Shown: positions 3,263 through 64,000 of the stretch, in pieces
Layout of the letters: the number at the start of each line of letters is the position of its first letter
How positions within the stretch are numbered: position 1 is the stretch's first letter
Assembly: GCF_024713975.1 (NCBI RefSeq)
Contig: NC_091114.1
Span: 5,676,001-5,740,000, forward strand
DNA from: Paralichthys olivaceus
Lineage: Eukaryota; Chordata; Actinopteri; Pleuronectiformes; Paralichthyidae
Reading direction: 5' to 3'
Length of the DNA stretch: 64,000 nt
Notes under the pieces: model-generated
Database searches by the model: none
The model's input: only the letters and a program-made list of their open reading frames with translations
What the model was told of the DNA's origin: nothing
Translations under genes and position numbers: made by a program

Positions 3263-4690
3263 AAACCAAAGATCCCACTGATGGCCGGCAGGAGGTGCCA
3301 ACTCATAATAATTCCCCAGCAGTTTGGAGTGGACCAGTCAAATGTGTACTTAAGGTGGGGTCTCTTCTTGTGATGTAATTCTATGGAAGCATGTTGCATC
3401 AACTTGAGAGAAATATCAAAGAGTTTTTTTCATTTTTGTTTGCAAATGCTACATGCTTTTGTACAATTCAACCACAAATGAGTATTTTCCGCTGCGTAAT
3501 GCCAGTATTCAGACTTGAGGTGTAAGCTGGACCTTATAGAAAAACACCACTAGACATGTGAAATACATTTCTGATACAGTAGACTTGGGCTGCTGGCCCG
3601 TCTTCCTGTGGTTGGAACTTGTTAAATTGAAGATGTTATCTCCAGCTCTGTTTAAGAATAACAAGCAGGGTGTCAGTGCTTGTGCATGCTCACACATCTC
3701 AGCTGTGACCACACAGTGCTGTCTCTTTCTCACTCACTCTGATAGATATAAGATGATGAGAAGTTGAGTTAAGTTACTTCAAGCTAATTGAAGTTGTGAT
3801 AAGAAAATAAGATATGTTAAGATTACCTAACTGAAGTCAAGATAAGTTCAATTAAGTCAATTCAAGATCTTAAGATAAGATAGAATGAGATAAGTGTTAG
3901 GGACAGAAGACGTATTGTTGACACATTTTAACATCCGGTGTGAAGAGACAAACTTAACACTGACCACTTCTGATTGGATCTCAGGACAGGACGTCTGAAC
4001 AGAGCCTGTGTCTCTGGTCGGTGTCAAAGGAGTCAAGTTCAGAGGAGGCAGGATCAGTGTTTTTCAGGACATACATTTGTAATTTTGCAGCTCACTGATG
4101 TGTCACTGCTGTGGAGGTGCCGGTGGTGTCGCTGCATGGAAACAACAAAACATTGTTGCTTGTGGTTGTGGTGCATTGAGTTGAAGGCCAGTCTTCCTGT
4201 GGTTGAGCCGTCACAGCACATGTGCATTGTTTTAGACACACAGTTGATTAAACCAAGTTCAGTCAGACAACTCATGTTCAAATGTTTATTGCAACAGTGG
4301 AACAGTTATTGTTTGAAGTCCAACTTAATCACTCCCCCAGATGTCATTACATAGATATGATGGGAGATTGGAGCAGACTCTGTAGTAGTGAACGAGTCAG
4401 AGTCAGACTGTACGTGATGAGCCAGCTTCCTTTGACCTTTGACCTACTGTCGCTTCCTGTCAAACAAGTGATGCACTGCAGACCTCCATCTGCCCCAAAC
4501 TATAAGTTGACCTGTGGATTGTGATGGTGGTTGTGGGTCATGACGATGGATTGAGCTTATATGCAAAGTGCCTTGAGATAATGAATATTCATATATATAT
4601 ATATATATATATGAATATTCTATGAACATCCCCCCGGAGGCCATGACTAAAACAAGACTCTGGACAATCATCAAGACCTTTTCCTTCCTT
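3263..4690. other. non-coding block downstream of V1 (repeated in every unit)
   Basis: No gene is supported here. The block holds an A/G-rich run of loosely repeated aagttaag and aagataag words at about 3765-3900, then a palindromic AT repeat near 4583-4621. Homologous blocks lie at 8312-9740, 15342-16775 and 22302-23730. The open frames in it are the same in all four copies only because the copies are recent. Confidence 0.6.
4583..4621. repeat. palindromic AT repeat downstream of V1
   Basis: An (AT)n tract is framed by inverted arms gaatattcatat and atatgaatattc, so the whole element can fold into a hairpin. Copies with different AT lengths lie at about 9635-9669, 16667-16705 and 23627-23661. 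Confidence 0.75.
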
Positions 4691-4827
4691 TGCCTTTATT
4701 TCTTTTGCACCAAGATACACATGTACAATGAGAAGATAAAGACTTCACTTTAAGTAAGATTTTAAATTGTGGCAGCACAAAATCCCAAAAGCAGACTGAC
4801 GACAGAGCCTCAGTTCCTCTCTGAGTT

Positions 4828-6669
4828 TCAGTTCCAGTGGTTTCTTGAGTCCATGGTGGTGGCGTACACAACATTAGGCTCCAGCTCTCCTCTTCCAGCA
4901 GGCCTTCTGCTCTGCTCTGCTCTTGAAGGGAAACTCAGTGCTGCATAATTCAGGTCACCAAAGCCCATATTCTGTAAATGGAAGTATTCAGTTACTCATC
5001 TCACACTGAGCTGTCTGTGTGACATTTCATAAAACCACTACTTGATGACTGAAAGACTGGACTTGGATCAATGTTAATCTATGGTTCAAGTTTGATTACC
5101 GTATTGTGAGGTGGATCCTGCGCCTCATTATGTCCTGAATGACAGAAACAATACATGTGGTCAGTTCATTGTTCAGGAATCAGGAAGCGTTGTATCAGCA
5201 AAGTTGGAGTAAAAACACATAAATACCTGGATGAAGTTTCCAGATTTTAAGAACCAGAACGATGATGATTATAATGAGGAGGACAATCAAACTGCCCATG
5301 AGGGTCTTGATGGTCAGATTTGCTTGTGCATCAGACTCTTCTACAAGAAAGATACATTATTGTGCGATGAGATTAAAGACTGTATATAAAGATGGACGAC
5401 GTGAAGCCAAAACATCCTACGTTTCACCTCTATTTTATAGCATCAAATAACAAAAACCTTGAGCATCAGTGTGATAAGAACAACCTCAAATGACCAAATC
5501 CATCTATCTTATTTTGGTCCATGTCCCATTTGCTAACATGGAGTGGGCAGGGTTTATGACTTGTATTGCAGCCAGCTTTTTATACAGTCTATGGTGCAGA
5601 GAAATGCTGACACCATCACAAAGCCTTCAGCAGAGGATACATTTCTTTAGATCTAAACATAATTTGCTTATCAACTACTAACGTTGTATAAAAGAAGCAG
5701 GCAAATATAATTTGATGTGTATTTTAAAATTTTAAAGTTTGATCCATGTCCCATCCACTAACACAGAGGACACGACCTATATGGCAGTCCACCACCAGGT
5801 GGCAATCGAGACGCTTTGGCTCCCTTTTTGGGGAACTGTCATGAATTTAGCTCAGACCAGCTCTTATTTCAAGACGGCTTAAAAATCTATTTCCCTTAAA
5901 ACAAAATACAAACAAAACTCTGCAGCGATCTTACCTTTAACCTTCAAATATATTGCACTGTAAACTGCTGGGACCTTTTTGGAGTCACTGTCCTTGGTAA
6001 ATCCACATATATAGAGTCCAGAGTCAGATAAATCCACTTGTTTGATTTGGAGAAAGAGGGTACTGACGTTGGACGTCATGCTGAACTTTTCTTTTTCAAA
6101 TCCATTGCTGAGCTGTGCATCTGTGTCAGGGTTTAACATGGAGGAGATTTGGCTGGTGTTGGATCTGTTGTCCAGTCTGAACCAGGATATGTGAGAAAGG
6201 ACACTGCTGTAGTTGGTACACAACAGCGTGACCTCTTCACCAGTCTGAACCTCCACAAAGTGAAAATTGCAACGTGAGACAGAGATCCAGCCTGAAACAA
6301 ACAACATTGTGACATTTTTCTGTTTGGGTAGAGACATTGTTGCAAGGGAAATCTTGCAGGGTGAAGTTTTTTCTGGTCACAGATAATGTCAGATGTATTT
6401 ATTGTCAATTTACCTGATGCATCAGGGGAGAAAGGAGTATTATACACTTTCAAAGTAAAGGTGGCTACATACCATTAGTCAATTTGTGGAGCGTCTCTCT
6501 ATCTTTCTTAGGCTAACCACTGTTTTGTCTAAACACTGGGTCCTAAAGGAGAATAAAGCTACAAAATAGATCTAAACCATTCAAAAACATAAAGGTTGGC
6601 TGTTGTTATACTGAGAAAAAAATAGATCTACTTACTTAGGATACAGAGTAAAGCTGATAGAAGGTTCAT
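4828..6669 (-). CDS. V1: single V-domain Ig receptor with ITIM, array 1 copy 1
   Basis: Five exons on the minus strand: 6636-6669 (leader, starts MNLLSALLC), 5935-6291 (V domain), 5227-5340 (membrane), 5100-5134 (35 bp cytoplasmic) and 4828-4971 (last). All have GT-AG borders, and the joined frame gives 227 aa. The V domain has the two core cysteines (TLLC and LYIC), the core tryptophan (ISWFRL) and the DSGLYIC signature, with several N-x-S/T glycosylation sites. The membrane exon encodes a long Ile/Val/Leu run after TLMGS, with no charged residue inside it. The tail carries DLNYAALSF, a canonical ITIM expected to recruit SHP-type phosphatases, and a second tyrosine in NVVYATT. A polyadenylation signal lies at 4695-4700. 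Predicted as an inhibitory surface receptor on leukocytes; the ligand is unknown. The exon plan matches the NITRs of array 2 but without an I domain. It could alternatively be named a generic teleost V-set receptor. Confidence 0.85.
5377..5590. mobile_element. short interspersed element in intron 2 of V1
   Basis: It starts agactgtatataaagatgg and ends with the inverted form tatacagtct, a pattern I recognise as a very common percomorph interspersed repeat, probably a non-autonomous DNA element. Copies occur at 10426-10703 (V2), 17461-17734 (V3) and 24417-24630 (V4). Copies 2 and 3 are longer and retain the inner part with gtcgtccatctttttgtacagtct. Copies 1 and 4 carry the same internal shortening. 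The family name cannot be fixed without a repeat library. Confidence 0.55.
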
Positions 6670-6777
6670 CGTCGTGTGCACGGTAGAGCAGCACTTGTGT
6701 AATGTTCGTCACTGAACTGTGTTCCCTTTGAGTGGTCTCAGAGTAAAGAGGCGGGTTCAGGCTGACACTTTTTCATG

Positions 6778-16911: not shown

Positions 16912-18873
16912 TCAGTTCCAGTGGTTTCTTGAGTCCATGGTGGTGGCGTACACAACATTAGGCTCCAGCTCTCCTCTTCCAGCAGGCCTTCTGCTCTGCT
17001 CTGCTCTTGAAGAGAAACTCAGTGCCGCATAATTCAGGTCACCAGAGCCCATATTCTGTAAATGGAAGTCTTCAGTTACTCATCTCACACTGAGCTGTCT
17101 GTGTGACATTTCATAAAACCACTACTTGATGACTGAAAGACTGGACTTGGATCAATGTTAATCTATGGTTCAAGTTTGATTACCGTATTGTGAGGTGGAT
17201 CCTGTGCCTCATTATGTCCTGAATGACAGAAACAATACATGTGGTCAGTTCATTGTTCAGGAATCAGGAAGCGTTGTATCAGCAAAGTTGGAGTAAAAAC
17301 ACATAAATACCTGGATGGAGTTTCCAGATTTTAAGAACCAGAACGATGATGATTATAATGAGGAGGACAATCAAACCGCCCATGAGGGTCTTGATGGTCA
17401 GATTTGCTTGTGCATCAGACTCTTCTACAAGAAAGATACATTATTGTGCGATGAGATTAAAGACTGTATATAAAGATGGACGACGTGAAGCCAAAACATC
17501 CCACGTTTCACCTCCATTTTATTGCATCAAATAACAAAAACCTTGAGCATCAGTGTGATAAGAACAACCTCAAATGACCAAATCCATCTATCTTATTTTG
17601 GTCCATGTCCCATTTGCTAACATGGAGTGGGCAGGGTTTATGACTTATATTGCAGCCAGCCACCAGATAGTGACTGAGAGGCTTTGGCTTCACTTTTGAG
17701 GTGCTGTCATGTCGTCCATCTTTTTGTACAGTCTATGGTGTTGTATGTTCGTATGATTAGCACTTCAATCATAGCACTCATGCACTTAAAGTATCCTTCA
17801 CAAATGGCAGTTATGATGCTCAGATGAGGGCTTTACAATTGTTTCTATATTTCGTTTTACCCCATCGACGGTGATATGTTGTGGTTTCTCTCTTTTGACA
17901 AATGTACTTATTGTAAGTCGCTTTGGACAAAAGTGTCTGCTAAATTTCCTAACTGTTAATGTAAGATTTAGGACCTATATGGCAGTCCACCACCAGGTGG
18001 CGATCGAGACTCTTTGGCTTCCTTTTTGGGGAACTGTCATGTATTTTGCTCAGACCAGCTCTTATTTCAAGATGGCTTAAAAATGTATTGACCTTAAAAC
18101 AAAATACAAAGAAAACTCTGCAGCGATCTTACCTTTAACTTTCAAATATGTTGCACTGTAAATTGTTGGGACCTTTTTGGAGTCTCTGTTCATGGTAAAT
18201 CCACAAATATAGAGTCCAGAGTCAGATAAATCCACTTGTTTGATTTGGAGAAAGAGGGTACTGACGTTGGACGTCATGCTGAACTTTTCTTTTTCAAATC
18301 CATTGCTGAGCTGTGCATCTGTGTCAGGGTTTAACATGGAGGAGATTTGGCTGGTGTTGGATCTGTTGTCCAGTCTGAACCAGGATATGTGAGAAAGGAC
18401 ACTGCTGTAGTTGGTACACAACAGCGTGACCTCTTCACCGGTCTGAACCTCCACAACGTGAAAATTGCAACGTGAGACAGAGATCCAGCCTGAAACAAAC
18501 AACATTGTGACATTTTTCTGTTTGGGTAGAGACATTGTTGCAAGGGAAATCTTGCAGGGTGAAGTTTTATCTGGTCACAGATGATGTCAGATGTATTTAT
18601 TGTCAATTTACCTGATGCATCAGGGGAGAAAGGAATATTATACACCTTCAAAGTAAAGGTGGCTACATACCATTAGTCAATTTGTGGAGCGTCTCTCTAT
18701 CTTTCTTAGGCTAACCACTGTTTTGTCTAAACACTGGGTCCTAAAGGAGAATAAAGCTACAAAAAAGATCTAAACCATTCAAAAACATAAAGGTTGGCTG
18801 TTGTTATATTGAGAAAAAAATAGATCTACTTACTTAGGACACAGAGTAAAGCTGATAGAAGGGTAAGGTTCAT
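16912..18873 (-). CDS. V3: single V-domain Ig receptor with ITIM, array 1 copy 3
   Basis: Exons on the minus strand are 18834-18873, 18133-18489, 17311-17424, 17184-17218 and 16912-17055, in frame, giving 229 aa. The leader is two codons longer than in V1 and V2 (MNLTLLSALLC), a form shared with V4. The V domain keeps TLLC, ISWFRL and DSGLYIC, and the tail keeps DLNYAALSF and VVYATT. The C-terminus is the V1 form, ending NHWN. A polyadenylation signal lies at 16779-16784. No lesion was found. Confidence 0.85.
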
Positions 18874-28961: not shown

Positions 28962-30136
28962 CTACTGCTTCACACTCAAGTACACACACTCACTCCAGGT
29001 ATCATCCCTCTGTCCTCTGGATCTGTTCATCTTTATCTCCCTGTGAGCAATGTAGCAGGGGTCGTCTTCACTCTGCTCATCCTGGGCATGAGAAACACTC
29101 AGTCAAGTTGTTGACCATGACAGACAATGTGCACAAGTGTTTGAAGAGTAACACAACAGCTCATCTTTACCTTTGCATTTAATTTGGAGGATGGAGCACG
29201 AGGATCTGAAAAGACAGAAAGACTTTTTAATAATGTCATATAATGATCACTGGGATCATGAAGAACAGATAGTAGCATTTACCTGGAACCCTCATCATGC
29301 ATATCGAGAAAGCCAGTAAAATACTCAGCAGGGTCGTGAATGCCGAAGTTGCACTCAAGAAAACCACCAGCCTGTCCAGCTCATCTGCAAAGAGACAGAG
29401 GACAGGAGACGTCACACACTTTTAACCTAAAGTAATGATCACTATTCATCACATGAGACTCACCATCAACGTCCAGCTTGGTCCTGTGTCCAAACAGTAT
29501 GTGTCCACATGCAGCGACAGCACAGTAGTAGGTCCCAGCATGAGAACGGTTCAGTGTCATTGACAAGTTGTAGACACAGGTGTGTGTCTGTGTGTCAGGT
29601 TTCCTCTCACACTGATCCTTCCTGTCTCCGTGGGTGTAAATGAGTCCTGACTGAGGTTCTTCAGAGATCTTGAACCAGTAAACACTGTGTTCTCCACCAC
29701 AGGTCCCAGTGTGAACTGTACAGCTGAGAGTCACAGAGCCTCCTGGCTGGATGTTCTCAGACTGATGCACCAGAGCCTGGATGTTCAACCCTGAACCTTT
29801 CACACTGACAGTGACGCCCTCCGTGAACTCAAACTCATATGAATTACTCTTTAAACAGTAGTAAGTAGCTGAGTCTGAAAGTTGCATATCTGAGATATTT
29901 AGGTGACTCACAACATCAGTAGATTCCAGAGTGAAGCGTGGATTGTTCTTGAATTCATTAAATAATGAAAAATCTTTAGAGAATTTGTAAGTCATTGAGA
30001 TAATTCAAGGCTTCTGTCCTGGTGTTTGCTTGTACCAATAAATCCTAATGTCCTCCCTCTTGTTGAAACACTGGAAAGTCAAGTTGTCTCCAACATCAAC
30101 TGATCTAAATCCTCTGTCTTGTTGAGACGAGATGAA
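28962..30136 (-). pseudogene. NITR-1: class b NITR-like pseudogene, 5' truncated
   Basis: Exons on the minus strand: V plus I domains in one exon, 29464 to about 30136, then membrane exon 29283-29384, 35 bp exon 29171-29205 and last exon 28962-29081. The I domain is intact, with TVHTGTCGGEHSVYWFK, DAGTYYC-type ending and a J-like FGHRTKLD. FGNGTKLD is the form in other copies. The V domain has an in-frame stop at 30005-30007, in place of the arginine found after GQKP in intact copies. The V exon loses homology near 30136, so splice acceptor and leader exon are gone. The tail has PCYIAHREI and CVYLSV, neither a canonical ITIM. A polyadenylation signal is at 28810-28815. NITR-5 shares the stop and the truncation. 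Confidence 0.85.
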
Positions 30137-30146
30137 TAGTGAATAG

Positions 30147-33999: not shown

Positions 34000-34007
34000 T
34001 TAAGTTC

Positions 34008-34596: not shown

Positions 34597-34599
34597 ATC

Positions 34600-37527: not shown

Positions 37528-39558
37528 CTACAGTTTAACACCTGAGTACACACATTCATCCCTGGTGTTGTCCCTCTGTCGTCTTGATCTGCTGGCCACT
37601 TTCACATTTAACGCAGCGTAATGGAGGCCATCTGCATCTTGGTTGCCCTAGAAACGACATATAAGTACATCAAGATGGCTCCTGATGAAAAACGTGTTTG
37701 TTGTGGAATGTAAATTTCACACTTAAAAAGATTATATTTACCTCTGCGTTTGTTGTGGAGGGAGATGATGGTTGTGTACAAGACTCTGGGTATGAAACAC
37801 ATATAAAAACTTTGAGTCACTCTTTTGTCCACACATGTACTGTTAGGTGCCTTTACCTCTTAACCTGATTTGAACCTTGGTTTTTAATTTAATGTGAAAC
37901 ATGAAACTATAATTCATGTTTTATGATTCATGCATTTATTTATGAAATGTTTTAAGGTGTCCTTATCTAGAAAGGTGCCGTGAAATAAAATGTAATATTA
38001 TCATTTTGCTCAAAAGCTAAACTGAACTCTATCTAGAGATGAGTGGTTACCTGAACATCTCCAGCATGTTCTCTTGTTTATCTTGTACAGTAACACAGCC
38101 AGCAAAACACTGATGGTGAATGTCAAAGCTCCACTCAGGAAAAACACCGTCCAGTTCACCTCATCTGCAACAGGAGAAATTCTAGTAATTCTGACTCTTC
38201 TTTTTAAAATTTCATTTAACTTTGCAAGAGACAACACAAGACATTTCTATATTAGAAGAAAAAATATTATTTATAATTATAATAACAAAACTAACAATCA
38301 TGTAATAATAATGATCATATAATGATATGAACCATCTGACCACTATAACAACAATAATGTCCCCATCACAATAATAATAATAGTAATAATAATATGATCA
38401 TTGAGGGAAAAAAAGAAAAGAAAAAAAGCTGCACTCATACTTAATAATTCACGTCTTGTCACCACTAGTGTTATTTATAATAACAGTATATTATAACCAT
38501 TACTATGATCATCGTTATCATCACCAATAATAATCATGAATAAAAAATTCTACTTAGTTGTGGTGCACACCACCACCGTCCACTGGTGGTGAAGCATTGT
38601 TGGGTCACCGTCAGGAGGGACATTCAGACAGGACAGGATTTTACCAATTGTTTGGTCCCAACTGTCACAATACATCAAGTGAGACAGTCTCTGGTAGTGA
38701 CTCACCATCAACGTCCAGCTTGGTCCCGTTTCCAAACAGTATGTGTCCACATGCAGCGACAGCACAGTAGTAGGTCCCAGCATGAGAACGGTTCAGTCTC
38801 ATTGACAAGTTGTAGACACAGGTGTCTGTCTGTGTGTCAGGTTTCCTCTCACACTGATCCTTCCTGTCTCCGTGGGTGTAAATGAGTCCTGACTGAGGTT
38901 CTTCAGAGATCTTGAACCAGTAAACACTGTGTTCTCCACCACAGGTCCCAGTGTGAACTGTACAGCTGAGAGTCACAGAGCCTCCTGGCTGGATGTTCTC
39001 AGACTGATGCACCAGAGCCTGGATGTTAAACCCTGAACCTTTCACACTGACAGTGACGCCCTCCGTGAACTCAAACTCAAATGAATTACTCTTTGAACAG
39101 TAGTAAGTAGCTGAGTCTGAAAGTTGCACATCTGAGATATTTAGGTGACTCACAACATCAGTAGATTCCAGAGTGAAGCGTGGATTGTTCTTGAATTCAT
39201 TCAATAATGAAAAATCTTTTGAGAATTTGTAAGCGATTGAGATAAATCGAGGCTTCTGTCCTGGTGTTTGCTTGAACCAATATATCTTATTGTCCTCCCT
39301 CTCATAGAAACACTTGAAAGTCAAGTTGTCTCCAACATCAACTGATTTAAATCCACTGTGTTGATGAGACAAGATAAAATGATGCATCTGAACTGAAGAG
39401 AAAAAGGAGAAAAGCCAAACAACAGTTAATTTTATGTGACAGAAATGAAATCGTAATCAGCATCAGGACCGACTGAATATTTATAAAACACACAACTCAC
39501 CCATTTTCCCGAAGAGGAAACATGTCAGGTAGAGAATGAACTGCGGAGATGTCATCAT
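37528..39558 (-). CDS. NITR-4: novel immune-type receptor, class a, with ITIM
   Basis: Exons on the minus strand are 39501-39558, 38706-39392, 38051-38164, 37742-37785 and 37528-37647, in frame, giving 340 aa. The layout is that of NITR-2. The V domain has LTFKCFYERED, IYWFKQTPGQKP and ATYYCSKSNSF. The I domain ends CAVAACGHILFGNGTKLDV. The tail carries LHYAAL (ITIM) and CVYSGV. The V domain is one residue longer than in NITR-2 (YEREDNK against YEGDSK). The likely polyadenylation signal is at 37137-37142, with a 9-base G tract (mRNA sense) at 37360-37368. No lesion was found. Confidence 0.92.
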
Positions 39559-41946: not shown

Positions 41947-43120
41947 CTACTGCTTCACACTCAAGTACACACACTCACTCCAGGTATCATCCCTCTGTCC
42001 TCTGGATCTGTTCATCTTTATCTCCCTGTGAGCAATGTAGCAGGGGTCGTCTTCACTCTGCTCATCCTGGGCATGAGAAACACTCAGTCAAGTTGTTGAC
42101 CATGACAGACAATGTGCACAAGTGTTTGAAGAGTAACACAACAGCTCATCTTTACCTTTGCTTTTATTTTGGAGGATGGAGCACGAGGATCTGAAAAGAC
42201 AGAAAGACTTTTTAATAATGTCATATAATGATCACTGGGATCATGAAGAACAGATAGTAGCATTTACCTGGAACCCTCATCATGTATATTGAGAAAGCCA
42301 GTAAAACACTCAGCACAGTCGTGAATGCCGAAGTTGCACTGAAGAAAACCACCAGCCTGTCCAGCTCATCTGCAAAGAGACAGAGGACAGGAGACGTCAC
42401 ACACTTTTAACCTAAAGTAATGATCACTATTCATCACATGAGACTCACCATCAACGTCCAGCTTGGTCCCGTTTCCAAACAGTATGTGTCCACATGCAGC
42501 GACAGCACAGTAGTAGGTCCCAGCATGAGAACGGTTCAGTCTCATTGACAAGTTGTAGACACAGGTGTGTGTCTGTGTGTCAGGTTTCCTCTCACACTGA
42601 TCCTTCCTGTCTCCGTGGGTGTAAATGAGTCCTGACTGAGGTTCTTCAAAGTTCTTGAACCAGTAAACACTGTGTTCTCCACCACAGGTCCCAGTGTGAA
42701 CTGTACAGCTGAGAGTCACAGAGCCTCCTGGCTGGATGTTCTCAGACTGATGCACCAGAGCCTGGATGTTCAACCCTGAACCTTTCACTCTGACAGTGAT
42801 TCCCTCCATAAACTCAAACTCAAATGAACGACTCTTTGAACAGTAGTAAGTAGCTGAGTCTGAAAGTTGCATATCTGAGATATTTAGGTGACTCACAACA
42901 TCAGTAGATTCCAGAGTGAAGCGTGGATTGTTCTTGAATTCATTAAATAATGAAAAATCTTTAGAGAATTTGTAAGTCACTGAGATAATTCAAGGCTTCT
43001 GTCCCGGTGTTTGCTTGTACCAATAAATCCTAATGTCCTCCCTCTTGTTGAAACACTGGAAAGTCAAGTTGTCTCCAACATCAACTGATCTAAATCCTCC
43101 GTCTTGTTGAGACGAGATGA
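41947..43120 (-). pseudogene. NITR-5: class b NITR-like pseudogene, 5' truncated
   Basis: Exons on the minus strand: V plus I exon 42449 to about 43120, membrane 42268-42369, 35 bp exon 42156-42190 and last exon 41947-42066. The I domain is intact with FGNGTKLDV. The V domain has the same in-frame stop after GQKP as NITR-1 (42990-42992) and the same 5' truncation with loss of the leader, so both derive from one dead ancestor. The V-domain end reads SKSRSFEFEFMEGITV, unlike NITR-1. The tail has PCYIAH- and CVYLSV-type tyrosines but no canonical ITIM. A polyadenylation signal is at 41795-41800. Confidence 0.85.
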
Positions 43121-43967: not shown

Positions 43968-45999
43968 CTACAGTTTAACACCTGAGTACACACATTCATC
44001 CCTGGTGTTGTCCCTCTGTCGTCTTGATCTGCTGGCCACTTTCACATTTAACGCAGCGTAATGGAGGCCATCTGCATCTTGGTTGCCCTAGAAACGACAT
44101 ATAAGTACATCAAGATGGCTCCTGATGAAAAACGTATTTGTTGCGGAATGTAAATGTCACACTTAAAAAGATTATATTTACCTCTGCATTTGTTGTGGAG
44201 GGAGATGATGGTTGTGTACAAGACTCTGGGTATGAAACACATATAAAAACTTTGAGTCACTCTTTTGTCCACACATGTACTGTTAGGTGCCTTTACCTCT
44301 TAACCTGATTTGAACCTTGGTTTTTAATTTAATGTGAAACATGAAACTTTAATTCATGTTTTATGATTCATGCATTTATTTATGAAATGTTTTAAGGTGT
44401 CCTTATCTAGAAAGGTGCCGTGAAATAAAATGTATTATTATCATTTTGCTCAAAAGCTAAACTGAACTCTATCTAGAGATGAGTGGTTACCTGAACATCT
44501 CCAGCATGTTCTCTTGTTTATCTTGTACAGTAACACAGCCAGCAAAACACTGATGGTGAATGTCAAAGCTCCACTCAGGAAAAACACCGTCCAGTTCACC
44601 TCATCTGCAACAGGAGAAATTCTAGTAATTCTGTCTCCTCTTTTTAAAATTTCATTTAACTTTGCAAGAGACAACACAAGACATTTCTATATTAGAAGAA
44701 AAAATATTATTTATAATTATAATAACAAAACTAACAATCATGTAATAATAATGATCATATTATGATATGAACCATCTGACCACTATAACAACAATAATGT
44801 CCCCATCACAATAATAATAATAGTAATAATAATATGATCATTGAGGGAAAAAAAGAAAAGGAAAAAAAGCTGCACTCATACTTAATAATTCACGTCTTGT
44901 CACCACTAGTGTTATTTATAATAACAGTATATTATAACCATTACTATGATCATCGTTATCATCACCAATAATAATCATAAATAAAACATTCTACTTAGTT
45001 GTGGTGCACACCACCACCGTCCACTGGTGGTGAAGCATTGTTGGGTCACCGTCAGGAGGGACATTCAGACAGGACAGGATTTTACCAATTGTTTGGTCCC
45101 AACTGTCACAATACATCAAGTGAGACAGTCTCTGGTAGTGACTCACCATCAACGTCCAGCTTGGTCCCGTTTCCAAACAGTATGTGTCCACATGCAGCCA
45201 CAGCACAGTAGTAGGTCCCAGCATGAGAACGGTTCAGTCTCATTGACAAGTTGTAGACACAGGTGTGTGTCTGTGTGTCAGGTTTCCTCTCACACTGATC
45301 CATCCTGTCTCCGTGGGTGTAAATGAGTCCTGACTGAGGTTCTTCAGAGTTCTTGAACCAGTAAACACTGTGTTCTCCACCACAGGTCCCAGTGTGAACT
45401 GTACAGCTGAGAGTCACAGAGCCTCCTGGCTGGATGTTCTCAGACTGATGCTCCAGAGCCTGGATGTTCAACCCTGAACCTTTCACAATGACAGTGACGC
45501 CCTCCGTAAACTCAAACACATATGAACGACTCTTGAAACAGTAGTAAGTAGCTGAGTCTGAAAGTTGCACATCTGAGATATTTAGGTGACTCACAACATC
45601 AGTAGATTCCAGAGTGAAGCGTGGATTGCTCTTGAATTCATTCAATAATGAAAAAATTTTCGATAACTTGTAAGTCACTGAGATAATTCGAGGCTTCTGT
45701 CCTGGTGTTTGCTTGAACCAATAAATCATCTTGTCCTCCCTCTCATAGAAACATTTGAAAGTCAAGTTGTCTCCAACATCAACTGATTTAAATCCTCTGT
45801 GTTGATGAGACAAGATAAAATGATGCATCTGAACTGAAGAGAAAAAGGAGAAAAGCAAAACAACAGTTAATTTTATGTGACAGAAATGAAATCGTAATCA
45901 GCATCAGGACCGACTGAATATTTATAAAACACACAACTCACCCATTTTCCCAAAGAGGAAACATGTCAGGTAGAGAATGAACTGCGGAGATGTCATCAT
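43968..45999 (-). CDS. NITR-6: novel immune-type receptor, class a, with ITIM
   Basis: Exons on the minus strand are 45942-45999, 45147-45833, 44491-44604, 44182-44225 and 43968-44087, in frame, giving 340 aa. V domain: LTFKCFYERED, MIYWFKQTPGQKP, ATYYCFKSRSYVFEF. The I domain differs from its neighbours at only a few positions (ALEHQSENIQ for ALVHQSENIQ, and GDRMDQ for GDRKDQ). The tail holds the ITIM LHYAAL and CVYSGV. The 3' UTR G tract is the longest of the set at 18 bases. The likely polyadenylation signal is at 43568-43573. No lesion was found. Confidence 0.92.
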
Positions 46000-48054: not shown

Positions 48055-49406
48055 CTACTGCCTCACACTCAAGTACACACACTCACTCCAGGTATCATCC
48101 CTCTGTCCTCTGGATCTGTTCATCTTTATCTGCCTGTGAGCAATGTAGCAGGGGTCGTCTTCACTCTGCTCATCCTGGGCATGAGAAACACTCAGTCAAG
48201 TTGTTGACCATGACAGACAATGTGCACAAGTGTTTGAAGAGTAACACAACAGCTCATCTTTACCTTTGCATTTATTTTGGAGGATGGAGCACGAGGATCT
48301 GAAAAGAGAGAAAGACTTTTTAATAATGTCATATAATGATCACTGGGATCATGAAGAACAGATAGTAGCATTTACCTGGAACCCTCATCATGCATATTGA
48401 GAAAGACAGTAAAACACTCAGCACGGTCGTGAATGCCGAAGTTGCACTCAAGAAAACCACCAGCCTGTCCAGCTCATCTGCAAAGAGACAGAGGACAGGA
48501 GACGTCACACACTTTTAACCTAAAGTAATGATCACTATTCATCACATGAGACTCACCATCAACATCCAGCTTGGTCCCGTTTCCAAACAATATGTGTCCA
48601 CATGCAGCAACAGCACAGTAGTAGGTCCCAGCATGAGAACGGTTCAGTCTCATTGACAAGTTGTAGACACAGGTGTGTGTCTGTGTGTCAGGTTTCCTCT
48701 CACACTGATCCTTCCTGTCTCCGTGGGTGTAAATGAGTCCTGACTGAGGTTCTTCAGAGTTCTTGAACCAGTAAACACTGTGTTCTCCATCACAGGTCCC
48801 AGTGTGAACTGTACAGCTGAGAGTCACAGAGCCTCCTGGCTGGATGTTCTCAGACTGATGCACCAGAGCCTGGATGTTCAACCCTGAACCTTTCACACTG
48901 ACAGTGACGCCCTCCGTGAACTCAAACACATATGAACGACTCTTGAAACAGTAGTAAGTAGCTGAGTCTGAAAGTTGCACTTCTGAGATTTTTAGTTGAC
49001 TATCAACATCAGTAGATTCCAGAGTGAAGCGTGAATTGTTCTTGAATTCATTAAATAACAAAAATTCTTTCCTGACTTTGTAAGTCACTGAGATAGTTCG
49101 AGGCTTCTGTCCTGGTGTTTGCTTGAACCAATAAATCTTATAGTCCTCCTCATAGAAACACTGGAAAGTCAAGTTGTCTCCAACATCAACTGATCTAAAT
49201 CCTCTGTGTTGATGAGACAAGATAAAATGATGCATCTGAACTGAAGAGAAAAAGGAGAAAAGCAAAACAACAGTTAATTTTATGTGACAGAAATGAAATC
49301 GTAATCAGCATCAGGACCGACTGAATATTTATAAAACGCACAACTCACCCATTTTCCCGAAGAGGAAACATGTCAGGTAGAGAATGAACTGCGGAGATGT
49401 CATCAT
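48055..49406 (-). CDS. NITR-7: novel immune-type receptor, class b, no canonical ITIM
   Basis: Exons on the minus strand are 49349-49406 (leader as in class a), 48557-49240 (V plus I), 48376-48477 (membrane), 48264-48298 (35 bp) and 48055-48174, in frame, giving 332 aa. This is the only class b copy with an open V domain (LTFQCFYEED, IYWFKQTPGQKP, ATYYCFKSRSY) and a leader. The I domain has GTCDGEHSVYWFK and FGNGTKLDV. The membrane exon differs from class a: DELDRLVVFLSATSAF, then a hydrophobic run without charge. The tail has PCYIAHRQ and CVYLSV, so both tyrosines lack the hydrophobic -2 residue of an ITIM and the first also lacks the +3 one. Signalling output is therefore unclear. A polyadenylation signal is at 47903-47908. 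Confidence 0.88.
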
Positions 49407-50523: not shown

Positions 50524-52098
50524 CTAGATCTTTACACTGGAGTACACACATTCACTCCTGTCACCGTCTCTTTGTCTTCTTGCTCTGCTGAACCTGTGCT
50601 CCATTAAAGCAGCGTAATGTAGGTTGTCTGCATCTTGATGAACCTGCTAATAAAACATAAAAGTCATTTTCCATATTAGGAGGATATGTGTCTGAACATA
50701 GCTGATGTAGACAAGTGTTGAGAACAGAATTATTAAAGTCTAACTTCACCCAAAGTCCATGGAAATTTAAAAAATGCTGTTAGAATGCAGCGCTGGGAGG
50801 TGGGGCTAAGACACATGTACGACATACGAATTAGTTTGCTAAAGCTAAGTTATCTATATTGTCTATGGTCAACAACTCCCGTAGCAGCACACACACTTCT
50901 GCAAAATGTGATATTGAAACCAGCATTAATGTATTTCATCAAAGATCAGTCATAGGATTTAATTCTTAGTTCATTGGTCAAAAAATATAAAAAAGTGTGT
51001 GGTAGATATTCAAAGCTACTAAAGTAGTGCAACACTAACACTTACCTCCATATTCAGAGCTGCTGCAGCTGCTTGAGAGTCTAGTTGTGACAAAAGACAA
51101 CAACAAAAGTCTTATTCAAGATGCAATGAGCTGATGAACTGGATGTGGGGTGACTCTATTAGATGGATCAAAAGTCATGAAGTAAATTGGTCCATCACTT
51201 CATTGAGATTGAGTCATGGTGCAGTACTGCATAAACAAACACCAGCACTTTATTACCACTCTCAATCTGTGGCATGGACAATGTTTTCATGACGGTTATT
51301 TTCTTCAATGTACAAATAAGTATATTAAAATCTAAATGCATGATGATGTTATTAAAATCTGTTTTAGAGAACAACTAGAATGACGTTGTGAAGAGTGCAA
51401 ACTGGCACCAAGGTCCAACACTCGCTTCTAATTCAATCGAGCTGGACCAACTTGACGTCATTCATGTCTATAACTTGAGTTGAAATATTTCTACAACATT
51501 TGCGTGATGCAATATCATGAAAGCCAATCAGCACTGGCAGGTCCTGGCACCCGTCCGAGCTAGTGGGTGCTCAAACTGGCCACTGATCAGCTTCAGGTAG
51601 CACTGGGTTGTGTTTTAGTGTGAACGTGGATAAGACAAATCCTGCGACGTGTGAATGCACCATAAGAGATTTCCCTTTCTGTCTTTCAATGAATCTAGAT
51701 GTTCAAGTAACATGTTGCAACACTAACTCATGAATGTCTTTGCTGTTCTTCAGTATCATGCAAACTGAATTCACACCAACAAATATAAATGATGAGGATT
51801 ACCCCACCTGAGCACTGGCAGCAGTTTGTCTTGGACGCTCTTTGTGTTGTGTAAGCCAAAGAAACAACCAGGATTGTGGTGAACGCCAAAGCTCCACTCA
51901 AGAAATACACCAAGTGAAGATAGTCCACCACCTCTGCAGAGAGCCAGACATCAGGAGACATCACTGAGCTTTCCACCACTATTTAACAAATGTCACAATC
52001 TTTAAAAAAACTTTTTTTTACCTTTAAAGTTCACTTTGGTGCCGTTTCCAAACAGTATGTGTCCACATGCAGCGACAGCACAGTAGTAGGTCCCAGCA
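50524..52098 (-). pseudogene. NITR-8: class d NITR remnant with intact 3' exons and lost ectodomain
   Basis: From 3' to 5' on the minus strand: last exon 50524-50643 (NLHYAAL, a canonical ITIM, and ECVYSSVKI), 35 bp exon 51046-51080, membrane exon 51808-51933 (FLSGALAFTTILVVSLAY) and the end of an I domain 52022-52098 (AGTYYCAVAACGHILFGNGT, then KVNFK). All visible splice sites are good. Upstream of 52098 the Ig sequence stops and a retrotransposon gag fossil begins. No V domain or leader was found before NITR-9. The gene body sits where other blocks have only the relic last exon, so this is the best-preserved class d copy. The introns (50644-51045, 51081-51807) hold unassigned sequence. Confidence 0.82.
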
Positions 52099-52680
52099 AT
52101 CTTTGATTATGTTTGATAGTCCGTTTTGGAAGGTATCAACCAAGACTTTGTCATTCCAGCCACTATCACCTGCTAAGGTCTGAAACTCGATAGCATAATC
52201 CATAACAGTTTGTTTAATGGTGACCAAATTCTGGAAAGACTCCCAGCAATGGTTCGTGAGGTTGAAGATCTTGGAGAGGGCCTCTGTGAACAGGACTGAG
52301 GATTGGCACACCGGGGAGTTATGAGCAAATTCAGCTGTAGCCCATGCCTCTGCTCTGCCGGACAAGTGGGTGATGATTAAGGCTAGTTTGGCTCTCTCTG
52401 TGGGTAAGGAGGCAGCTTGCAGCTCAGAATGTAGTCCACACTGTCCCAGGATCGCTCAACAGTTTTCTGAATCCTCCCAGAAACACTCCGGTTCCGCCAG
52501 GTGAGGAGACGGGGGCTGCTGAAGTAGCTGGAACTACAGGGGATGTAGCAGACAAGGATCCTCCCATAAACCATGTTGAGCTGGGAATCTTGAAGGGAGA
52601 TACGCTCATCCTGCTGGTGGAGAGCAGCACAAACTGGAACCAGCTGGGTCCATTCTTGGCCAGTTTGTACTATCAGAACA
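52099..52680 (-). mobile_element. Ty3/Gypsy LTR-retrotransposon fossil, gag region only
   Basis: Minus-strand sequence resembles the gag (capsid-type) region of fish Ty3/Gypsy elements, for example the segments AEAWATAEF and ALSKIFN. It is a broken fragment with several disruptions. No pol region and no LTRs were recognised, so the element is far from whole and age cannot be estimated from LTR divergence. It abuts the I-domain exon of NITR-8. Confidence 0.75.
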
Positions 52681-54452: not shown

Positions 54453-56481
54453 CTACAGTTTAACACCTGAGTACACACATTCATCCCTGGTGTTGTCCCT
54501 CTGTCGTCTTGATCTGCTGGCCACTTTCACATTTAACGCAGCGTAATGGAGGCCATCTGCATCTTGGTTGCCCTGGAAACGACATATAAGTACATCAAGA
54601 TGGCTCCTGATGAAAAACGTATTTGTTGCGGAATGTAAATTTCACACTAAAATGATTATATTTACCTCTGCATTTGTTGTGGAGGGAGATGATGGTTGTG
54701 TACAAGACTCTGGGTATGAAACACATAAAAACTTTGAGTCACTCTTTTGTCCACACATGTACTGTTAGGTGCCTTTACCTCTTAACCTGATTTGAACCTT
54801 GGTTTTTAATTTAATGTGAAACATGAAACTTTAATTCATGTTTTATGATTCATGCATTTATTTATGAAATGTTTTAAGGTGTCCTTATCTAGAAAGGTGC
54901 CGTGAAATAAAATGTATTATTATCATTTTGCTCAAAATCTAAACTGAACTCTATCTAGAGATGAGTGGTTACCTGAACATCTCCAGCATGTTCTCTTGTT
55001 TATCTTGTACAGTAACACAGCCAGCAAAACACTGATGGTGAATGTCAAAGCTCCACTCAGGAAAAACACCGTCCAGTTCACCTCATCTGCAACAGGAGAA
55101 ATTCTATTAATTCTGTTTCCTCTTTTTTAATTTTTAATTTAACTTTGCAAGACAAGTGACAAGACATTTCTATATAAAAAGAAAAAATAGTATTAATAAT
55201 TATAATAACAAAACTAATAATCATGTAATAATAATGATCATATAATGATATGAACCATCTGACCACTATAACAACAATAATGTCCCCATCACAATAATAA
55301 TAATAGTAATAATAATATGATCATTGAGGGAAAAAAAGAAAAGAAAAAAAGCTGCACTCATACTTAATAATTCACGTCTTGTCACCACTAGTGTTATTTA
55401 TAATAACAGTATATTATAACCATTACTATGATCATCGTTATCATCACCAATAATAATCATGAATAAAAAATTCTACTTAGTTGTGGTGCACACCACCACC
55501 GTCCACTGGTGGTGAAGCATTGTAGGGTCACCGTCAGGAGGGACATTCAGACAGGACAGGATTTTACCAATTGTTTGGTCCCAACTGTCACAATACATCA
55601 AGTGAGACAGTCTCTGGTAGTGACTCACCATCAATGTCCAGCTTGGTCCCGTTTCCAAACAGTATGTGTCCACATGCAGCCACAGCACAGTAGTAGGTCC
55701 CAGCATGAGAACGGTTCAGTCTCAGTGACAAGTTGTAGACACAGGTGTGTGTCTGTGTGTCAGGTTTCCTCTCACACTGATCCTTCCTGTCTCCGTGGGT
55801 GTAAATGAGTCCTGACTGAGGTTCTTCAGAGTTCTTGAACCAGTAAACACTGTGTTCTCCATCACAGGTCCCAGTGTGAACTGTACAGCTGAGAGTCACA
55901 GAGCCTCCTGGCTGGATGTTCTCAGACTGATGCACCAGAGCCTGGATGTTCAACCCTGAACCTTTCACACTGACAGTGATTCCCTCCGTGAACTCAAACT
56001 CAGATGAATTACTCTTGAAACAGTAGTAAGTAGCTGAGTCTGAAAGTTGCACTTCTGAGATTTTTAGTTGACTATCAACATCAGTAGATTCCAGAGTGAA
56101 GCGTGGATTGTTCTTGAATTCGTTTAATAATGAAAACGTTTTTGATAACTTGTAAGCGATTGAGATAAATCGAGGCTTCTGTCCTGGTGTTTGCTTGAAC
56201 CAATATATCTTATTGTCCTCCCCCTCATAGAAACACTGGAAAGTCAAGTTGTCTCCAACATCAACTGATGTAAATCCACTCTCTTGTTGAGACAAGATAA
56301 AATGATGCATCTGAACTGAAGAGAAAAAGGAGAAAAGCAAAACAACAGTTAATTTTATGTGACAGAAATGAAATCGTAATCAACATCAGGACCGACTGAA
56401 TATTTATAAAACACACAACTCACCCATTTTCCCGAAGAGGAAACATGTCAGGTAGAGAATGAACTGCGGAGATGTCATCAT
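54453..56481 (-). CDS. NITR-9: novel immune-type receptor, class a, with ITIM
   Basis: Exons on the minus strand are 56424-56481, 55629-56315, 54973-55086, 54666-54709 and 54453-54572, in frame, giving 340 aa. The V-domain start (SQQESGFTSVDV, LTFQCFYEGED) is like NITR-2, its middle (PGQKPRFISIAYK) like NITR-4, and its end is its own (FKSNSSEFEFTEGITV). The I domain has GTCDGEHSV, as in NITR-7 and -11, and FGNGTKLDI. The tail holds the ITIM LHYAAL and CVYSGV. The G tract is 15 bases, and the likely polyadenylation signal is at 54056-54061. No lesion was found. Confidence 0.92.
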
Positions 56482-58951: not shown

Positions 58952-60367
58952 TCACTGCTTTATTCCTGAGTTCACACATTCAGCCTTTCTGTTGTCCCTC
59001 TGTGGTCTTGATCTGTTGGAGAAGTTTACATTCAAAGCAGCATAATGGAGGTCGTCTGCATCTCGGTAACCCTGGTTACAAAACATGTAGAGGCGGATTA
59101 GGATATTATATAGATAGAAATAGAAATTGAAACGGTAAAAGGATGTTTGAATGGTCATTAACGTCACCTGTGGATTTGTTGTGGGGGGAGCTGATGATCT
59201 TGCTTGTGACTCTGGTTATAAAACACACAAAATGTTCCTTTATTCAGAAGTTATATTCAGTGAATGCAAGCTATTGGATGAAACTGTTTCCACGTACCTG
59301 TGCACTGGCAGCTGTTTCTCTTGATTGTTTGATACATGGAGGAAGCCAGAGAAACTCACAGGAAGATGGTGGCTGTCAGAGCTCCGCTCAAGAAATAAAC
59401 ATGAGATCTGGGAGATTTCAACTCATCTGCAGAGAACAAGAGCTTATTTCTGTCTTGTTACAACATTTGATTAGAAACTTATACAAAATATTATTTCATT
59501 AAACAAGATGAGCTCTGTTACTCACGTTTAAAGTCCAGCTTGGTCCCGTTTCCAAACAGTATGTGTCCACATGCAGCGACAGCACAGTAGTAGGTCCCAG
59601 CATGAGAACGGTTCAGTCTCATTGACAAGTTGTAGACACAGGTGTGTGTCTGTGTGTCAGGTTTCCTCTCACACTGATCCTTCCTGTCTCCGTGGATGTA
59701 AATGAGTCCTGACTGAGGTTCTTCAGAGTTCTTGAACCAGTAAACACTGTGGTCTCCACCACAGGTCCCAGTGTGAACTGTACAGCTGAGAGTCACAGAG
59801 CCTCCTGGCTGGATGTTCTCAGACTGATGCACCAGAGCCTGGATGTTCAACCCTGAACCTTTCACACTGACAGTGACGCCCTGTGCAAACGTCAAGACGA
59901 ACATGTAGCTGTGTGCAGTAGTAAGTACCAGAGTCTGAAACTTTCAGATTAGAAATCTTCAAGTGATGTGTGCCTTTTTCAGAACCCAGCATCCTTGAAT
60001 TCATTAAAAAAAGTGGTCTTGGCATTAAACATGTAAAAGCTGGAGATGAACCTCCTGTGCTGGAGTTTGTTTGTACCAGAGGAGCCATGCTGAATCCTCA
60101 CTTTTATAGAAACACGGCAAAGTCACATTGTCTCCAACTTTGTCTGATAATGACCGTTTGTCTTGATGCACGATGGAGGGCAGATAAGATGAGCTGTGAG
60201 CTGAAGGGCAAGGAGAATAAGAACAGATGAAATGAAAATAGAAAGAAAATATGATGAGATATTGCATGAAGAGTTATTGTGAAGAAAAGGTCACAGAAAC
60301 ACAACTCACCCATGTTCCCTGGGAAGAGACATGTGAGATAGAAGACAAACTTGAGAGAAGTCATCAT
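58952..60367 (-). pseudogene. NITR-10: class c NITR-like pseudogene, less decayed sister of NITR-3
   Basis: Exons on the minus strand: leader 60310-60367, V plus I exon 59526-60200, membrane 59298-59426, 44 bp exon 59168-59211 and a full-length last exon 58952-59071. The last exon keeps the ITIM LHYAAL and ends ECVNSGIKQ, where the second tyrosine has become asparagine. The V domain shows the same two frame breaks as NITR-3. The membrane exon keeps one of the three stops seen in NITR-3. The I domain is open (GTCGGDHSVYWFK, FGNGTKLDF). A polyadenylation signal is at 58718-58723. Transcription is possible, but a full receptor is not. Confidence 0.83.
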
Positions 60368-61309: not shown

Positions 61310-63312
61310 CTACAGTTTAACACCTGAGTACACACATTCATCCCTGGTGTTGTCCCTCTGTCGTCTTGATCTGCTGGCCACTTTCACATTTAACGCAGCG
61401 TAATGGAGGCCATCTGCATCTTGGTTGCCCTAGAAGCGACATATAAGTACATCAAGATGGCTCCTGATGAAAAACGTGTTTGTTGCGGAATGTAAATTTC
61501 ACACTTAAAAAGATTATATTTACCTCTGCATTTGTTGTGGAGGGAGATGATGGTTGTGTACAAGACTCTGGGTATGAAACACATATAAAAACTTTGAGTC
61601 ACTCTTTTGTCCACACATGTACTGTTAGGTGCCTTTACCTCTTAACCTGATTTGAACCTTGGTTTTTAATTTAATGTGAAACATGAAACTTTAATTCATG
61701 CATTTATTTATGAAATGTTTTAAGGTGTCCTTATCTAGAAAGGTGCCGTGAAATAAATGTATTATTATCATTTTGCTCAAAAGCTAAACTGAACTCTATC
61801 TAGAGATGAGTGGTTACCTGAACATCTCCAGCATGTTCTCTTGTTTATCTTGTACAGTAACACAGCCAGCAAAACACTGATGGTGAATGTCAAAGCTCCA
61901 CTCAGGAAAAACACCGTCCAGTTCACCTCATCTGCAACAGGAGAAATTCTAGTAATTCTATTTCATCTTTTTTAATTTTTAATTTAACTTTGCAAGAGAC
62001 AACACAAGACATTTCTATATTAGAAGAAAAAAAATATTAATAATTATAATAACAAAACTAACAATCATGTAATAATAATGATCATATAATGATATGAACC
62101 ATCTGACCACTATAACAACAATAATGTCCCCATCACAATATTAATAATAATAATAATAATATGATCATGGAGGGAAAAAAAGCTGCACTCATACTTAATA
62201 ATTCACGTCTTGTCACCACTAGTGTTATTTATAATAACAGTATATTATAACCATTACTATGATCATCGTTATCATCACCAATAATAATCATAAATAAAAA
62301 ATTCTACTTAGTTGTGGTGCACACCACCACCGTCCACTGGTGGTGAAGCATTGTTGGGTCACCGTCAGGAGGGACATTCAGACAGGACAGGATTTTACCA
62401 ATTGTTTGGTCCCAACTGTCACAATACATCAAGTGAGACAGTCTCTGGTAGTGACTCACCATCAACGTCCAGCTTGGTCCCGTTTCCAAACAGTATGTGT
62501 CCACATGCAGCGACAGCACAGTAGTAGGTCCCAGCATGAGAACGGTTCAGTCTCATTGACAAGTTGTAGACACAGGTGTGTGTCTGTGTGTCAGGTTTCC
62601 TCTCACACTGATCCTTCCTGTCTCCGTGGGTGTAAATGAGTCCTGACTGAGGTTCTTCAGAGATCTTGAACCAGTAAACACTGTGTTCTCCATCACAGGT
62701 CCCAGTGTGAACTGTACAGCTGAGAGTCACAGAGCCTCCTGGCTGGATGTTCTCAGACTGATGCACCAGAGCCTGGATGTTCAACCCTGAACCTTTCACA
62801 CTGACAGTGACGCCCTCCATGAACTCAAACTCATATGAATTACTCTTGAAACAGTAGTAAGTAGCTGAGTCTGAAAGTTGCACATTTGAGATTTTTAGGT
62901 GACTCACAACATCAGTAGATTCCAGAGTGAAGCGTGGATTGTTCTTGAATTCGTTTAATGATGAAAAAGTTTTTGATAACTTGTAAGTCACTGAGATAAT
63001 TCGAGGCTTCTGTCCTGGTGTTTGCTTGAACCAATAAATCATCTTGTCCTCCCTCTCATAGAAATACTTGAAAGTCAAGTTGTCTCCAACATCAACTGAT
63101 CTAAATCCTCTGTGTTGATGAGACAAGATAAAATGATGCATCTGAACTGAAGAGAAAAAGGAGAAAAGCAACACAACAGTTAATTTTATGTGACAGAAAT
63201 GAAATCGTAATCAGCATCAGGACCGACTGAATATTTATAAAACACACAACTCACCCATTTTCCCGAAGAGGAAACATGTCAGGTAGAGAATGAACTGCGG
63301 AGATGTCATCAT
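61310..63312 (-). CDS. NITR-11: novel immune-type receptor, class a, V domain missing one core cysteine
   Basis: Exons on the minus strand are 63255-63312, 62460-63146, 61818-61931, 61524-61567 and 61310-61429, in frame, giving 340 aa. Splice sites, I domain (GTCDGEHSVYWFK, FGNGTKLDV), membrane segment and the ITIM LHYAAL are intact. The first core cysteine of the V domain is replaced by tyrosine: the segment reads LTFKYFYERED, where other copies have LTFKCFYERED. The partner cysteine in ATYYCFKSNSY is still present, so the canonical V-domain disulphide cannot form. The likely polyadenylation signal is at 60916-60921 and the G tract has 10 bases. Confidence 0.88.
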
Positions 63313-63417
63313 GTTGAAATCGTCGTGTTGAATGACAAACAGCCCGACACCTTCTCCTCTCTTCAGAGTAAAGACTTGTGTTGATTGGCCAGCAGGGCAA
63401 CACTGATCACATGATCA
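63313..63417 (-). promoter_or_regulatory. proximal 5' flank of NITR-11
   Basis: Same conserved blocks as before NITR-2, with tgatcacatgatca at 63404-63417. Function is inferred. Confidence 0.45.
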
Positions 63418-64000
63418 CTGCCACCTATGATGTGAATCTTTGTTCTTTAAATAGAATCACATGGTGAGAGACATCTGAAGCACTTAGAGTACATTATACT
63501 ACTACTACTACAGGTCTCTACCTCTTCCCTGTTATGCAAGAGATTATGTGTCTTACAATGTTGAAGAATGTGATGGAAAAATCTTGGATCAGCCCCTTTT
63601 GTCCAGATCTGAACCCAAATGTAACGGGTTATTTCTTGGCCCATGCTCTATCCCTCTCCCAACCAGCCAACCAGACAAGACAGGGGTGAAAACATAACTT
63701 CTTAGTGGAGGAAACAGTTTTAAGAGTCACATTGTAGAGTAACTGCTCTTGAAACTTTCAGACGTGACATGTACATGACACACATTCATAGTTTATTACG
63801 ACGTGTGACTTGAAAACAAAAAGATATCAGCAAAGATGAGGGCAGTGGTTTGTGTACTACATCAGAAAATGTGATCATATTTTGTGAGATCTCTTTTTAT
63901 TTGCTGTGGGCTGTGGGGAACTTGTTCTATTGCTTCATCTGCCCCTTTCAAGTCCCACAGACTGGATCATGGCTACCATGTGGTTGATGGAGTAATAAAT
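63418..64000. other. upstream block of NITR-11, cut by the window end
   Basis: Matches 33135-33720 upstream of NITR-2. The array evidently continues beyond the window. Confidence 0.6.

What the first reader, a model, noticed from the sequence alone, without database searches (positions are those of the whole stretch)
3263..64000. A V-only ITIM receptor array next to a NITR array, with the same exon grammar
Seen: V1-V4 and the NITRs share leader exons ending in phase 1, phase 1-1 Ig and membrane exons, a short cytoplasmic exon (35 bp in V1-V4 and in NITR classes b and d, 44 bp in classes a and c), and a phase 0 last exon. That last exon has an ITIM a few residues in (LNYAAL or LHYAAL, degraded in class b) and a second tyrosine near the end. 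Inference: V1-V4 are a single-domain branch of the NITR-like family that lacks the I domain, or its close sister, rather than an unrelated neighbour. I know of no named family for them.
Basis: partly seen in the sequence, partly recalled or inferred. Interest (0 to 1): 0.75.

Follow-up and report, generated by a model that had tools for sequence, protein, structure and literature searches.

The report
Single-domain NITR receptor array, flounder
Four tandem genes of the Japanese flounder encode proteins with one immunoglobulin domain and an inhibitory-type signalling motif; they likely belong to the already known single-domain branch of the fish NITR receptor family, and their sea bass relative is deposited as NITR13, so the find is mostly ordinary.

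Summary
Four intact minus-strand genes (V1-V4: leader, one V-set domain, membrane, 35-bp and ITIM exons; phases 1,1,1,0) lie beside a two-domain NITR array. The source is Paralichthys olivaceus: V2 equals a deposited flounder protein. That V1-V4 are a single-domain branch of the NITR complex is supported, but not by the exon plan, which salmon NILTs share. Better evidence: relatives in many spiny-rayed fishes, one deposited as sea bass 'Novel immune-type receptor 13'; catfish NITR10/11, which lack an I domain, are the only single-domain chains among the best solved matches of the family profile; the tail matches NITR tails well beyond the ITIM core; both families share a contig in 22 of 24 species. 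V1-V4 are not recent I-domain losers: they sit in a separate clade, with no DNA match to the local NITRs beyond a short repeat. Against: the V tree cannot place the clade, the J-like end is degraded, and V1 alone matches NITR10/11 no better than other V domains. NITRs without an I domain are already in print. Verdict: new members of a known kind. Some flatfish gene models join V1-type domains to NITR tails; whether these are real is open.

The parts
4828..6669 (-). V1 gene: leader 6669-6636, V-set 6291-5935, membrane 5340-5227, 35-bp cytoplasmic 5134-5100, ITIM exon 4971-4828; 227 aa
9859..11835 (-). V2 gene: leader 11835-11802, V-set 11458-11102, membrane 10389-10276, cytoplasmic 10183-10149, ITIM exon 10020-9859; 233 aa, identical to P0001 of P. 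olivaceus (compared by eye)
16912..18873 (-). V3 gene: leader 18873-18834, V-set 18489-18133, membrane 17424-17311, cytoplasmic 17218-17184, ITIM exon 17055-16912; 229 aa
23850..25713 (-). V4 gene: leader 25713-25674, V-set 25329-24973, membrane 24380-24267, cytoplasmic 24174-24140, ITIM exon 24011-23850; 235 aa
30976..33029 (-). class a two-domain NITR (Na1), open frame; V+I in one exon 32863-32180
37528..39558 (-). class a NITR (Na2), open frame
43968..45999 (-). class a NITR (Na3), open frame; sea bass Novel immune-type receptor 5 (P0170) is 63% identical over its full length
54453..56481 (-). class a NITR (Na4), open frame
61310..63312 (-). class a NITR (Na5), open frame but first V cysteine replaced by tyrosine
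48055..49406 (-). class b NITR (Nb3), open frame, degraded ITIM
28962..30100 (-). class b relic Nb1: stop in V exon, no leader found (upper edge approximate)
41947..43085 (-). class b relic Nb2: stop in V exon, no leader found (upper edge approximate)
35430..36761 (-). class c relic Nc1: V frame broken, last exon broken (lower edge approximate)
58952..60367 (-). class c relic Nc2: V frame broken
50524..52031 (-). class d relic: end of the I domain, membrane, 35-bp and ITIM exons only
3..957 (+). 3' part of an RBM4-family gene (RRM at 3-233), flank of the array

Best explanation
V1-V4 are four near-identical tandem copies of a gene that likely belongs to the known I-domain-less (single V) branch of the teleost NITR family and is predicted to act as an inhibitory receptor. 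Shown in the sequence: one V-set domain, a membrane segment without a charge in its middle, one canonical ITIM (LNYAAL) and a second tyrosine (VVYATT, off the ITIM consensus at +3). Inferred from established ITIM receptor biology: the V domain binds a surface ligand on other cells, a Src-family kinase phosphorylates the ITIM, and SHP-1/SHP-2 are recruited and damp activation of a cytotoxic or other lymphoid cell. Evolution, inferred: the family and the two-domain NITRs are old neighbours in one complex with separate V domains and homologous tails, and the flounder array grew by recent duplication of a 5-7 kb unit.
For: (1) V1 search: 499 proteins at E <= 0.001, best 120 listed; one is deposited as sea bass Novel immune-type receptor 13, 53% over 96%. 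110 of the 120 scan as one V1-type V plus V1-type tail (the models were built from part of the same proteins). (2) V1-family profile (42 sequences) against the PDB: the only chains of 140 aa or less among the best 60 are the six catfish NITR10/NITR11 ones, 51.8-54.6 bits. With a single consensus sequence the six score 36.0-41.6 bits, above every other chain that short in the list of 60 (best 35.5). With a 23-sequence subset they are again the only such chains among the 26 listed. (3) Mean BLOSUM62 scores: 30 of 34 V1-family V domains score higher against catfish I-less NITRs than against two-domain NITR V, and 34 of 34 higher than against antibody V (four sequences). Profile scores: catfish I-less 89.0, two-domain V 86.1, Ig V 70.3, I domain 49.2. 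(4) Tail: V1-family tails (103 of 120 proteins) against two-domain NITR tails (93 of 120) score 66.0 over 42 columns; with the ITIM core fixed and the other columns permuted, mean 24.0 and maximum 29.6 in 60 trials. (6) ITIM in 4 of 4; no mid-membrane charge in V1-V4. (7) PMC2442602 describes NITRs as having one or two Ig domains and reports that most I-less ones group together.
Confidence: 0.8

Rival explanations
1. V1-V4 are local NITRs that recently lost the I domain, by deletion or exon loss inside this array.
For: Same strand, adjacent, same phases, membrane exon of 114 bp as in class a.
Against: V1-family V domains form their own branch (97/92) apart from the two-domain V domains (100/99); V1 relatives are found in many other fishes; blastn at E <= 1e-4 finds no shared DNA between the arrays beyond a short repeat.
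Confidence: 0.04
2. V1-V4 belong to a separate V-set family that is only a neighbour of the NITRs and took over, or converged on, an NITR-like tail.
For: V tree unresolved and J motif degraded; V1 alone is no closer to NITR10/11 than to other V domains; exon plan shared with NILTs, so not diagnostic.
Against: Closest single-domain solved chains of the family profile are NITR10/11; tail homology; depositor name NITR13; linkage in 22 of 24 species.
Confidence: 0.14
3. V1-V4 are TIGIT-, CD28- or NILT/CD300-like receptors.
For: One darter relative is auto-named TIGIT-like (P0083); NILTs share the phases; a loose PVR-type [VI][ST]Q pattern is present in 7 of 120 relatives.
Against: PVR-type T[FY]PxG in 0 of 120, CD28-type PPP motif in 0 of 120, NILT/CD300-type paired cysteines in 1 of 120 (motifs recalled, and some members of those families lack them); no connecting-peptide exon, which salmon NILTs have.
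Confidence: 0.02

Closest known systems
Sea bass Novel immune-type receptor 13 (UniProt D2WL98, P0030)
   Same: 218 aa, one V domain, LNYAAL ITIM and second VYA tyrosine, 53% identity over 96% of V1
   Different: Tail ends at VYAATR, where V1-V4 run on for further residues
Catfish I-less NITRs (deposited as NITR5, 6, 8, 9, 11; NITR10 and 11 solved)
   Same: Single V domain, no I domain; an LNYA-type motif in the second half of 51 of 120 listed; SxTxLx[VF]-like end of V
   Different: Keep SGTxL in the J-like end (103 of 114); several have a Ser/Thr-rich stalk; own branch in V and tail trees
Two-domain NITRs of the same window and sea bass NITR5
   Same: Homologous tail, exon phases, linkage
   Different: V plus I domain in one exon; V branch separate
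Salmon NILTs
   Same: Intron phases and short Cyt1 exon (PMC3022915, passages)
   Different: CX3C or CX6C/CX7C Ig domains, connecting-peptide exon, several ITIMs

Membership tests
NITR (as described for medaka, PMC2442602) | Extracellular part is one V-type Ig domain, alone or followed by an I domain | tested here: met
   V1: Pfam V-set 44.6 bits (cut-off 26), single Ig domain; one-Ig forms are part of the description
NITR (as described for medaka, PMC2442602) | J or J-like sequence at the end of the V and/or I domain (nearly all medaka NITRs) | tested here: inconclusive
   Canonical FGxGTxL in 1 of 120 relatives; degenerate [AG]T, one or two residues, L, x, [VIF] in 93 of 120, against 104 of 114 catfish I-less and 1 of 116 two-domain V ends
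NITR (as described for medaka, PMC2442602) | Type I membrane protein, ITIM or itim tail and no charged mid-membrane residue (inhibitory class) | tested here: met
   4 of 4 window genes; canonical ITIM in the C-terminal part of 96 of 120 relatives; mid-membrane charge in 1 of 120
NITR (as described for medaka, PMC2442602) | Encoded in a NITR gene cluster | tested here: met
   Adjacent in the window; same contig in 22 of 24 species with both families listed
NITR (as described for medaka, PMC2442602) | V domain groups with named I-less NITRs | tested here: inconclusive
   Best family-profile and pairwise match, but V1 alone shows no preference and the tree is unresolved, p-AU 0.434 for that grouping
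NITR (as described for medaka, PMC2442602) | Cytoplasmic tail homologous to NITR tails | tested here: met
   hhalign 66.0 against permuted maximum 29.6 of 60; no tails of other ITIM families were available as a control
NILT | CX3C, CX6C or CX7C Ig domain and connecting-peptide exon | tested here: not met
   Pattern in 1 of 120 relatives; V exon followed directly by membrane exon; NILT features
TIGIT / PVR-like | T(F/Y)P motif of the V domain (recalled) | tested here: not met
   0 of 120; a second loose pattern, [VI][ST]Q, in 7 of 120
CD28 family | PPP motif of the CDR3-like loop (recalled; absent in some members) | tested here: inconclusive
   0 of 120
Inhibitory immune receptor (function) | Phosphorylated ITIM recruits SHP-1/SHP-2 and inhibits | not testable with these tools
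   Sequence motif only

The most novel reading that the evidence does not exclude
The two neighbouring families are one modular receptor system that swaps parts: flatfish genomes hold genes or transcripts in which a V1-type V domain is spliced to the class b NITR tail with its degraded ITIM (H. stenolepis, P. flesus), V1-type V and membrane parts to a class b last exon (P. platessa), and an NITR V-I ectodomain to a V1-type ITIM exon (L. limanda), so that the same ligand-binding domain can be set to an inhibitory or a non-inhibitory tail.
Probability: 0.2. Interest if true: 0.55.

Novelty: new member of a known kind. Interest (0 to 1): 0.3.

Why it matters
It ties a large set of fish proteins, mostly annotated as uncharacterized (120 of 499 hits seen), to the NITR complex, and it warns that shared exon phases and short cytoplasmic exons are not proof of kinship in fish Ig receptors. 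The flounder locus gives a clean place to ask whether the single-V and two-domain NITRs share ligands, cells or tails.
Full report
What is there. The window is from the Japanese flounder, Paralichthys olivaceus: the V2 protein read from the DNA is, by eye, letter for letter the deposited protein P0001. All receptor genes lie on the minus strand, so transcription runs from the NITR array towards V4, V3, V2, V1 and the end of the RBM4-family gene, which is on the plus strand. V1-V4 each have five exons with phases 1,1,1,0 and GT-AG borders. The proteins (227-235 aa) have a leader, one V-set domain (Pfam 44.6 bits for V1), a membrane segment without mid-membrane charge, LNYAAL and a second tyrosine. 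The four units are 97.8-98.6% identical. In the second array I modelled eleven NITR units, six with an open frame. Its NITR identity is backed by sea bass Novel immune-type receptor 5, 63% identical over 100% of Na3. V and I sit in one exon, the layout reported for pufferfish and for medaka chromosomes 18 and 21 (PMC2442602).

What V1-V4 are. A search with V1 gave 499 proteins at E <= 0.001, of which the best 120 are listed. They come from flatfishes, perches, sea basses, jacks, mackerels, cichlids, mullets, Centroberyx and others, and are mostly named uncharacterized, hypothetical or Ig-like protein; one is deposited as Novel immune-type receptor 13 of sea bass, and one H. stenolepis model as novel immune-type receptor 7b isoform X3. 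A scan finds the plain V1 layout in 110 of these 120, with models partly built from the same proteins. In the PDB the V1-family profile has catfish NITR10 and NITR11 as its only chains of 140 aa or less among the 60 best (same trend). With V1 alone as query this preference is not seen: 22.4-23.3 bits, below a VEGFR2 chain and several TCR or antibody chains. NITR10 and 11 belong to a set of single-V catfish proteins. The 176 relatives of the NITR10 V domain (best 120 listed) are from catfishes wherever a source name was given, and 51 of the 120 hold an LNYA-type motif in their second half (examples end in LNYAAVSF...VYAQV).

How firm this is. For the V tree I chose 32, 24 and 20 rows from the three lists of 120, added nine window rows, five I domains and four antibody V pieces; two chosen rows (P0017, P0061) were dropped because the V pattern was not found. 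The V1 branch itself is firm (34 rows, 97/92) and separate from two-domain NITR V (29 rows, 100/99), but its sister is not resolved. The best tree joins it to I domains with a long-branch warning, and tests of three other groupings give p-AU 0.25-0.43. The I-domain join stays without antibody rows (97/78) and is not listed without catfish rows. Profile scores favour catfish I-less NITRs (89.0) and two-domain V (86.1) over antibody V (70.3, four sequences) and I domains (49.2). Yet two-domain V and catfish V are themselves close to antibody V (105.9 and 91.0), so the V evidence alone is modest. A whole-length profile comparison of both families aligns the V domains only (E 1.4e-16, 23% identity). 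The tail, compared apart, gives the stronger signal: 66.0 over 42 columns against two-domain NITR tails, permuted maximum 29.6 in 60 trials with the ITIM core held fixed (103 and 93 of 120 proteins gave a tail). Against catfish tails (52 of 120) it is 38.0 over 22 columns, permuted maximum 35.3. Tails of unrelated ITIM families were not available as a control. The tail tree keeps V1-family (94/87), two-domain (99/89) and catfish (98/94) tails apart.

Linkage. Of the species with a contig length in both listings (best 120 of 499 and best 120 of 2,713), 22 of 24 have a V1-family and an NITR protein on a contig of the same length; the exceptions are Lates calcarifer and Micropterus dolomieu (lengths typed). 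For H. stenolepis the V1-family entry is a mixed model. Most contigs are chromosome-sized, but Seriola lalandi shares a 1.42-Mb contig, and Channa striata has locus tags Q5P01_002239 and Q5P01_002245. LOC numbers of both families are close or interleaved in Limanda, Pleuronectes, Platichthys, Siniperca and Dicentrarchus. LOC closeness is only a hint of distance.

Exon plan. NILTs differ by a connecting-peptide exon and by CX3C or CX6C/CX7C Ig domains.

J-like end. FGxGTxL is found at the V end in 1 of 120 V1-family proteins, by eye P0023, a model that has picked up an NITR-like stretch. A degenerate end ([AG]T, one or two residues, L, x, [VIF]) is found in 93 of 120, in 104 of 114 catfish I-less NITRs and in 1 of 116 two-domain V ends. 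I read this as a decayed J-like strand of the I-less type; that is inference.

Substitutions. Across V1-V4 the V exon has pN 0.030 and pS 0.040 (six pairs). Six NITR V parts have pN 0.075 and pS 0.077 (15 pairs), their I parts pN 0.012 and pS 0.019. Counts are small and the pairs not independent, so no claim about selection is made.

Function. Nothing here shows function. By the established logic of ITIM receptors the likely mechanism is ligand binding by the V domain, tyrosine phosphorylation and SHP recruitment. NITR genes were used as NK-cell markers in medaka (nitr2, nitr17; PMC11759298, passages), but expression of the V1 family was not looked at.

Mixed models. P0036 (H. stenolepis) and P0050 (P. 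flesus) join a V1-type V to the class b membrane and tail; P0010 (P. platessa) joins V and membrane parts to a class b last exon; P0195 (L. limanda) joins NITR V-I to a V1-type ITIM exon; P0018 and P0023 (L. limanda) are further mixtures. Junctions differ between species, so fused predictions or read-through are at least as likely as real exon swaps. They suggest that the genes lie next to each other and that the phases fit.

Known or new. NITRs are described as one- or two-Ig receptors, and most I-less ones of medaka, zebrafish, catfish and Tetraodon were reported to group together in 2008 (PMC2442602; I read parts 1-3 of 5 and search passages). V1-V4 are therefore best filed as new members of that known kind.

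Noticed in passing
window 58041-57931, 47227-47117, 41119-41012, 34590-34480 (minus strand): Four orphan copies of a class d type ITIM last exon (LHYSAL...CVYSSVK), each roughly 0.8-0.9 kb 3' of a class b or c gene. They could be relics or alternative 3' exons that would give class b an ITIM tail; by eye I saw no convincing splice acceptor.
   Followed up: partly
window 52027-52455 (minus strand): A retrotransposon gag piece (PF03732, E 1.5e-6) sits where the class d NITR should have its V and most of its I domain.
   Followed up: partly
window 63146-62460 (minus strand), Na5: The first V-domain cysteine is tyrosine (KYFYERED), so the usual V disulfide should not form in this otherwise open gene.
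   Followed up: no
window 30100-29464 and 43085-42449 (minus strand): Two class b NITRs share the same stop in the V exon (QKP*IIS) and have no leader found, so the broken state was probably duplicated.
   Followed up: partly
window 10869-10922 (plus strand): UnaL2 LINE 3' element in the V-to-membrane intron of V2 (Rfam RF00436, 55.8 bits).
   Followed up: no
P0001-P0120, V domain: 69 of 120 V1-family proteins match a rough pattern with two extra cysteines (C[IV]SxM...C); V1-V4 of the flounder lack the pair.
   Followed up: partly
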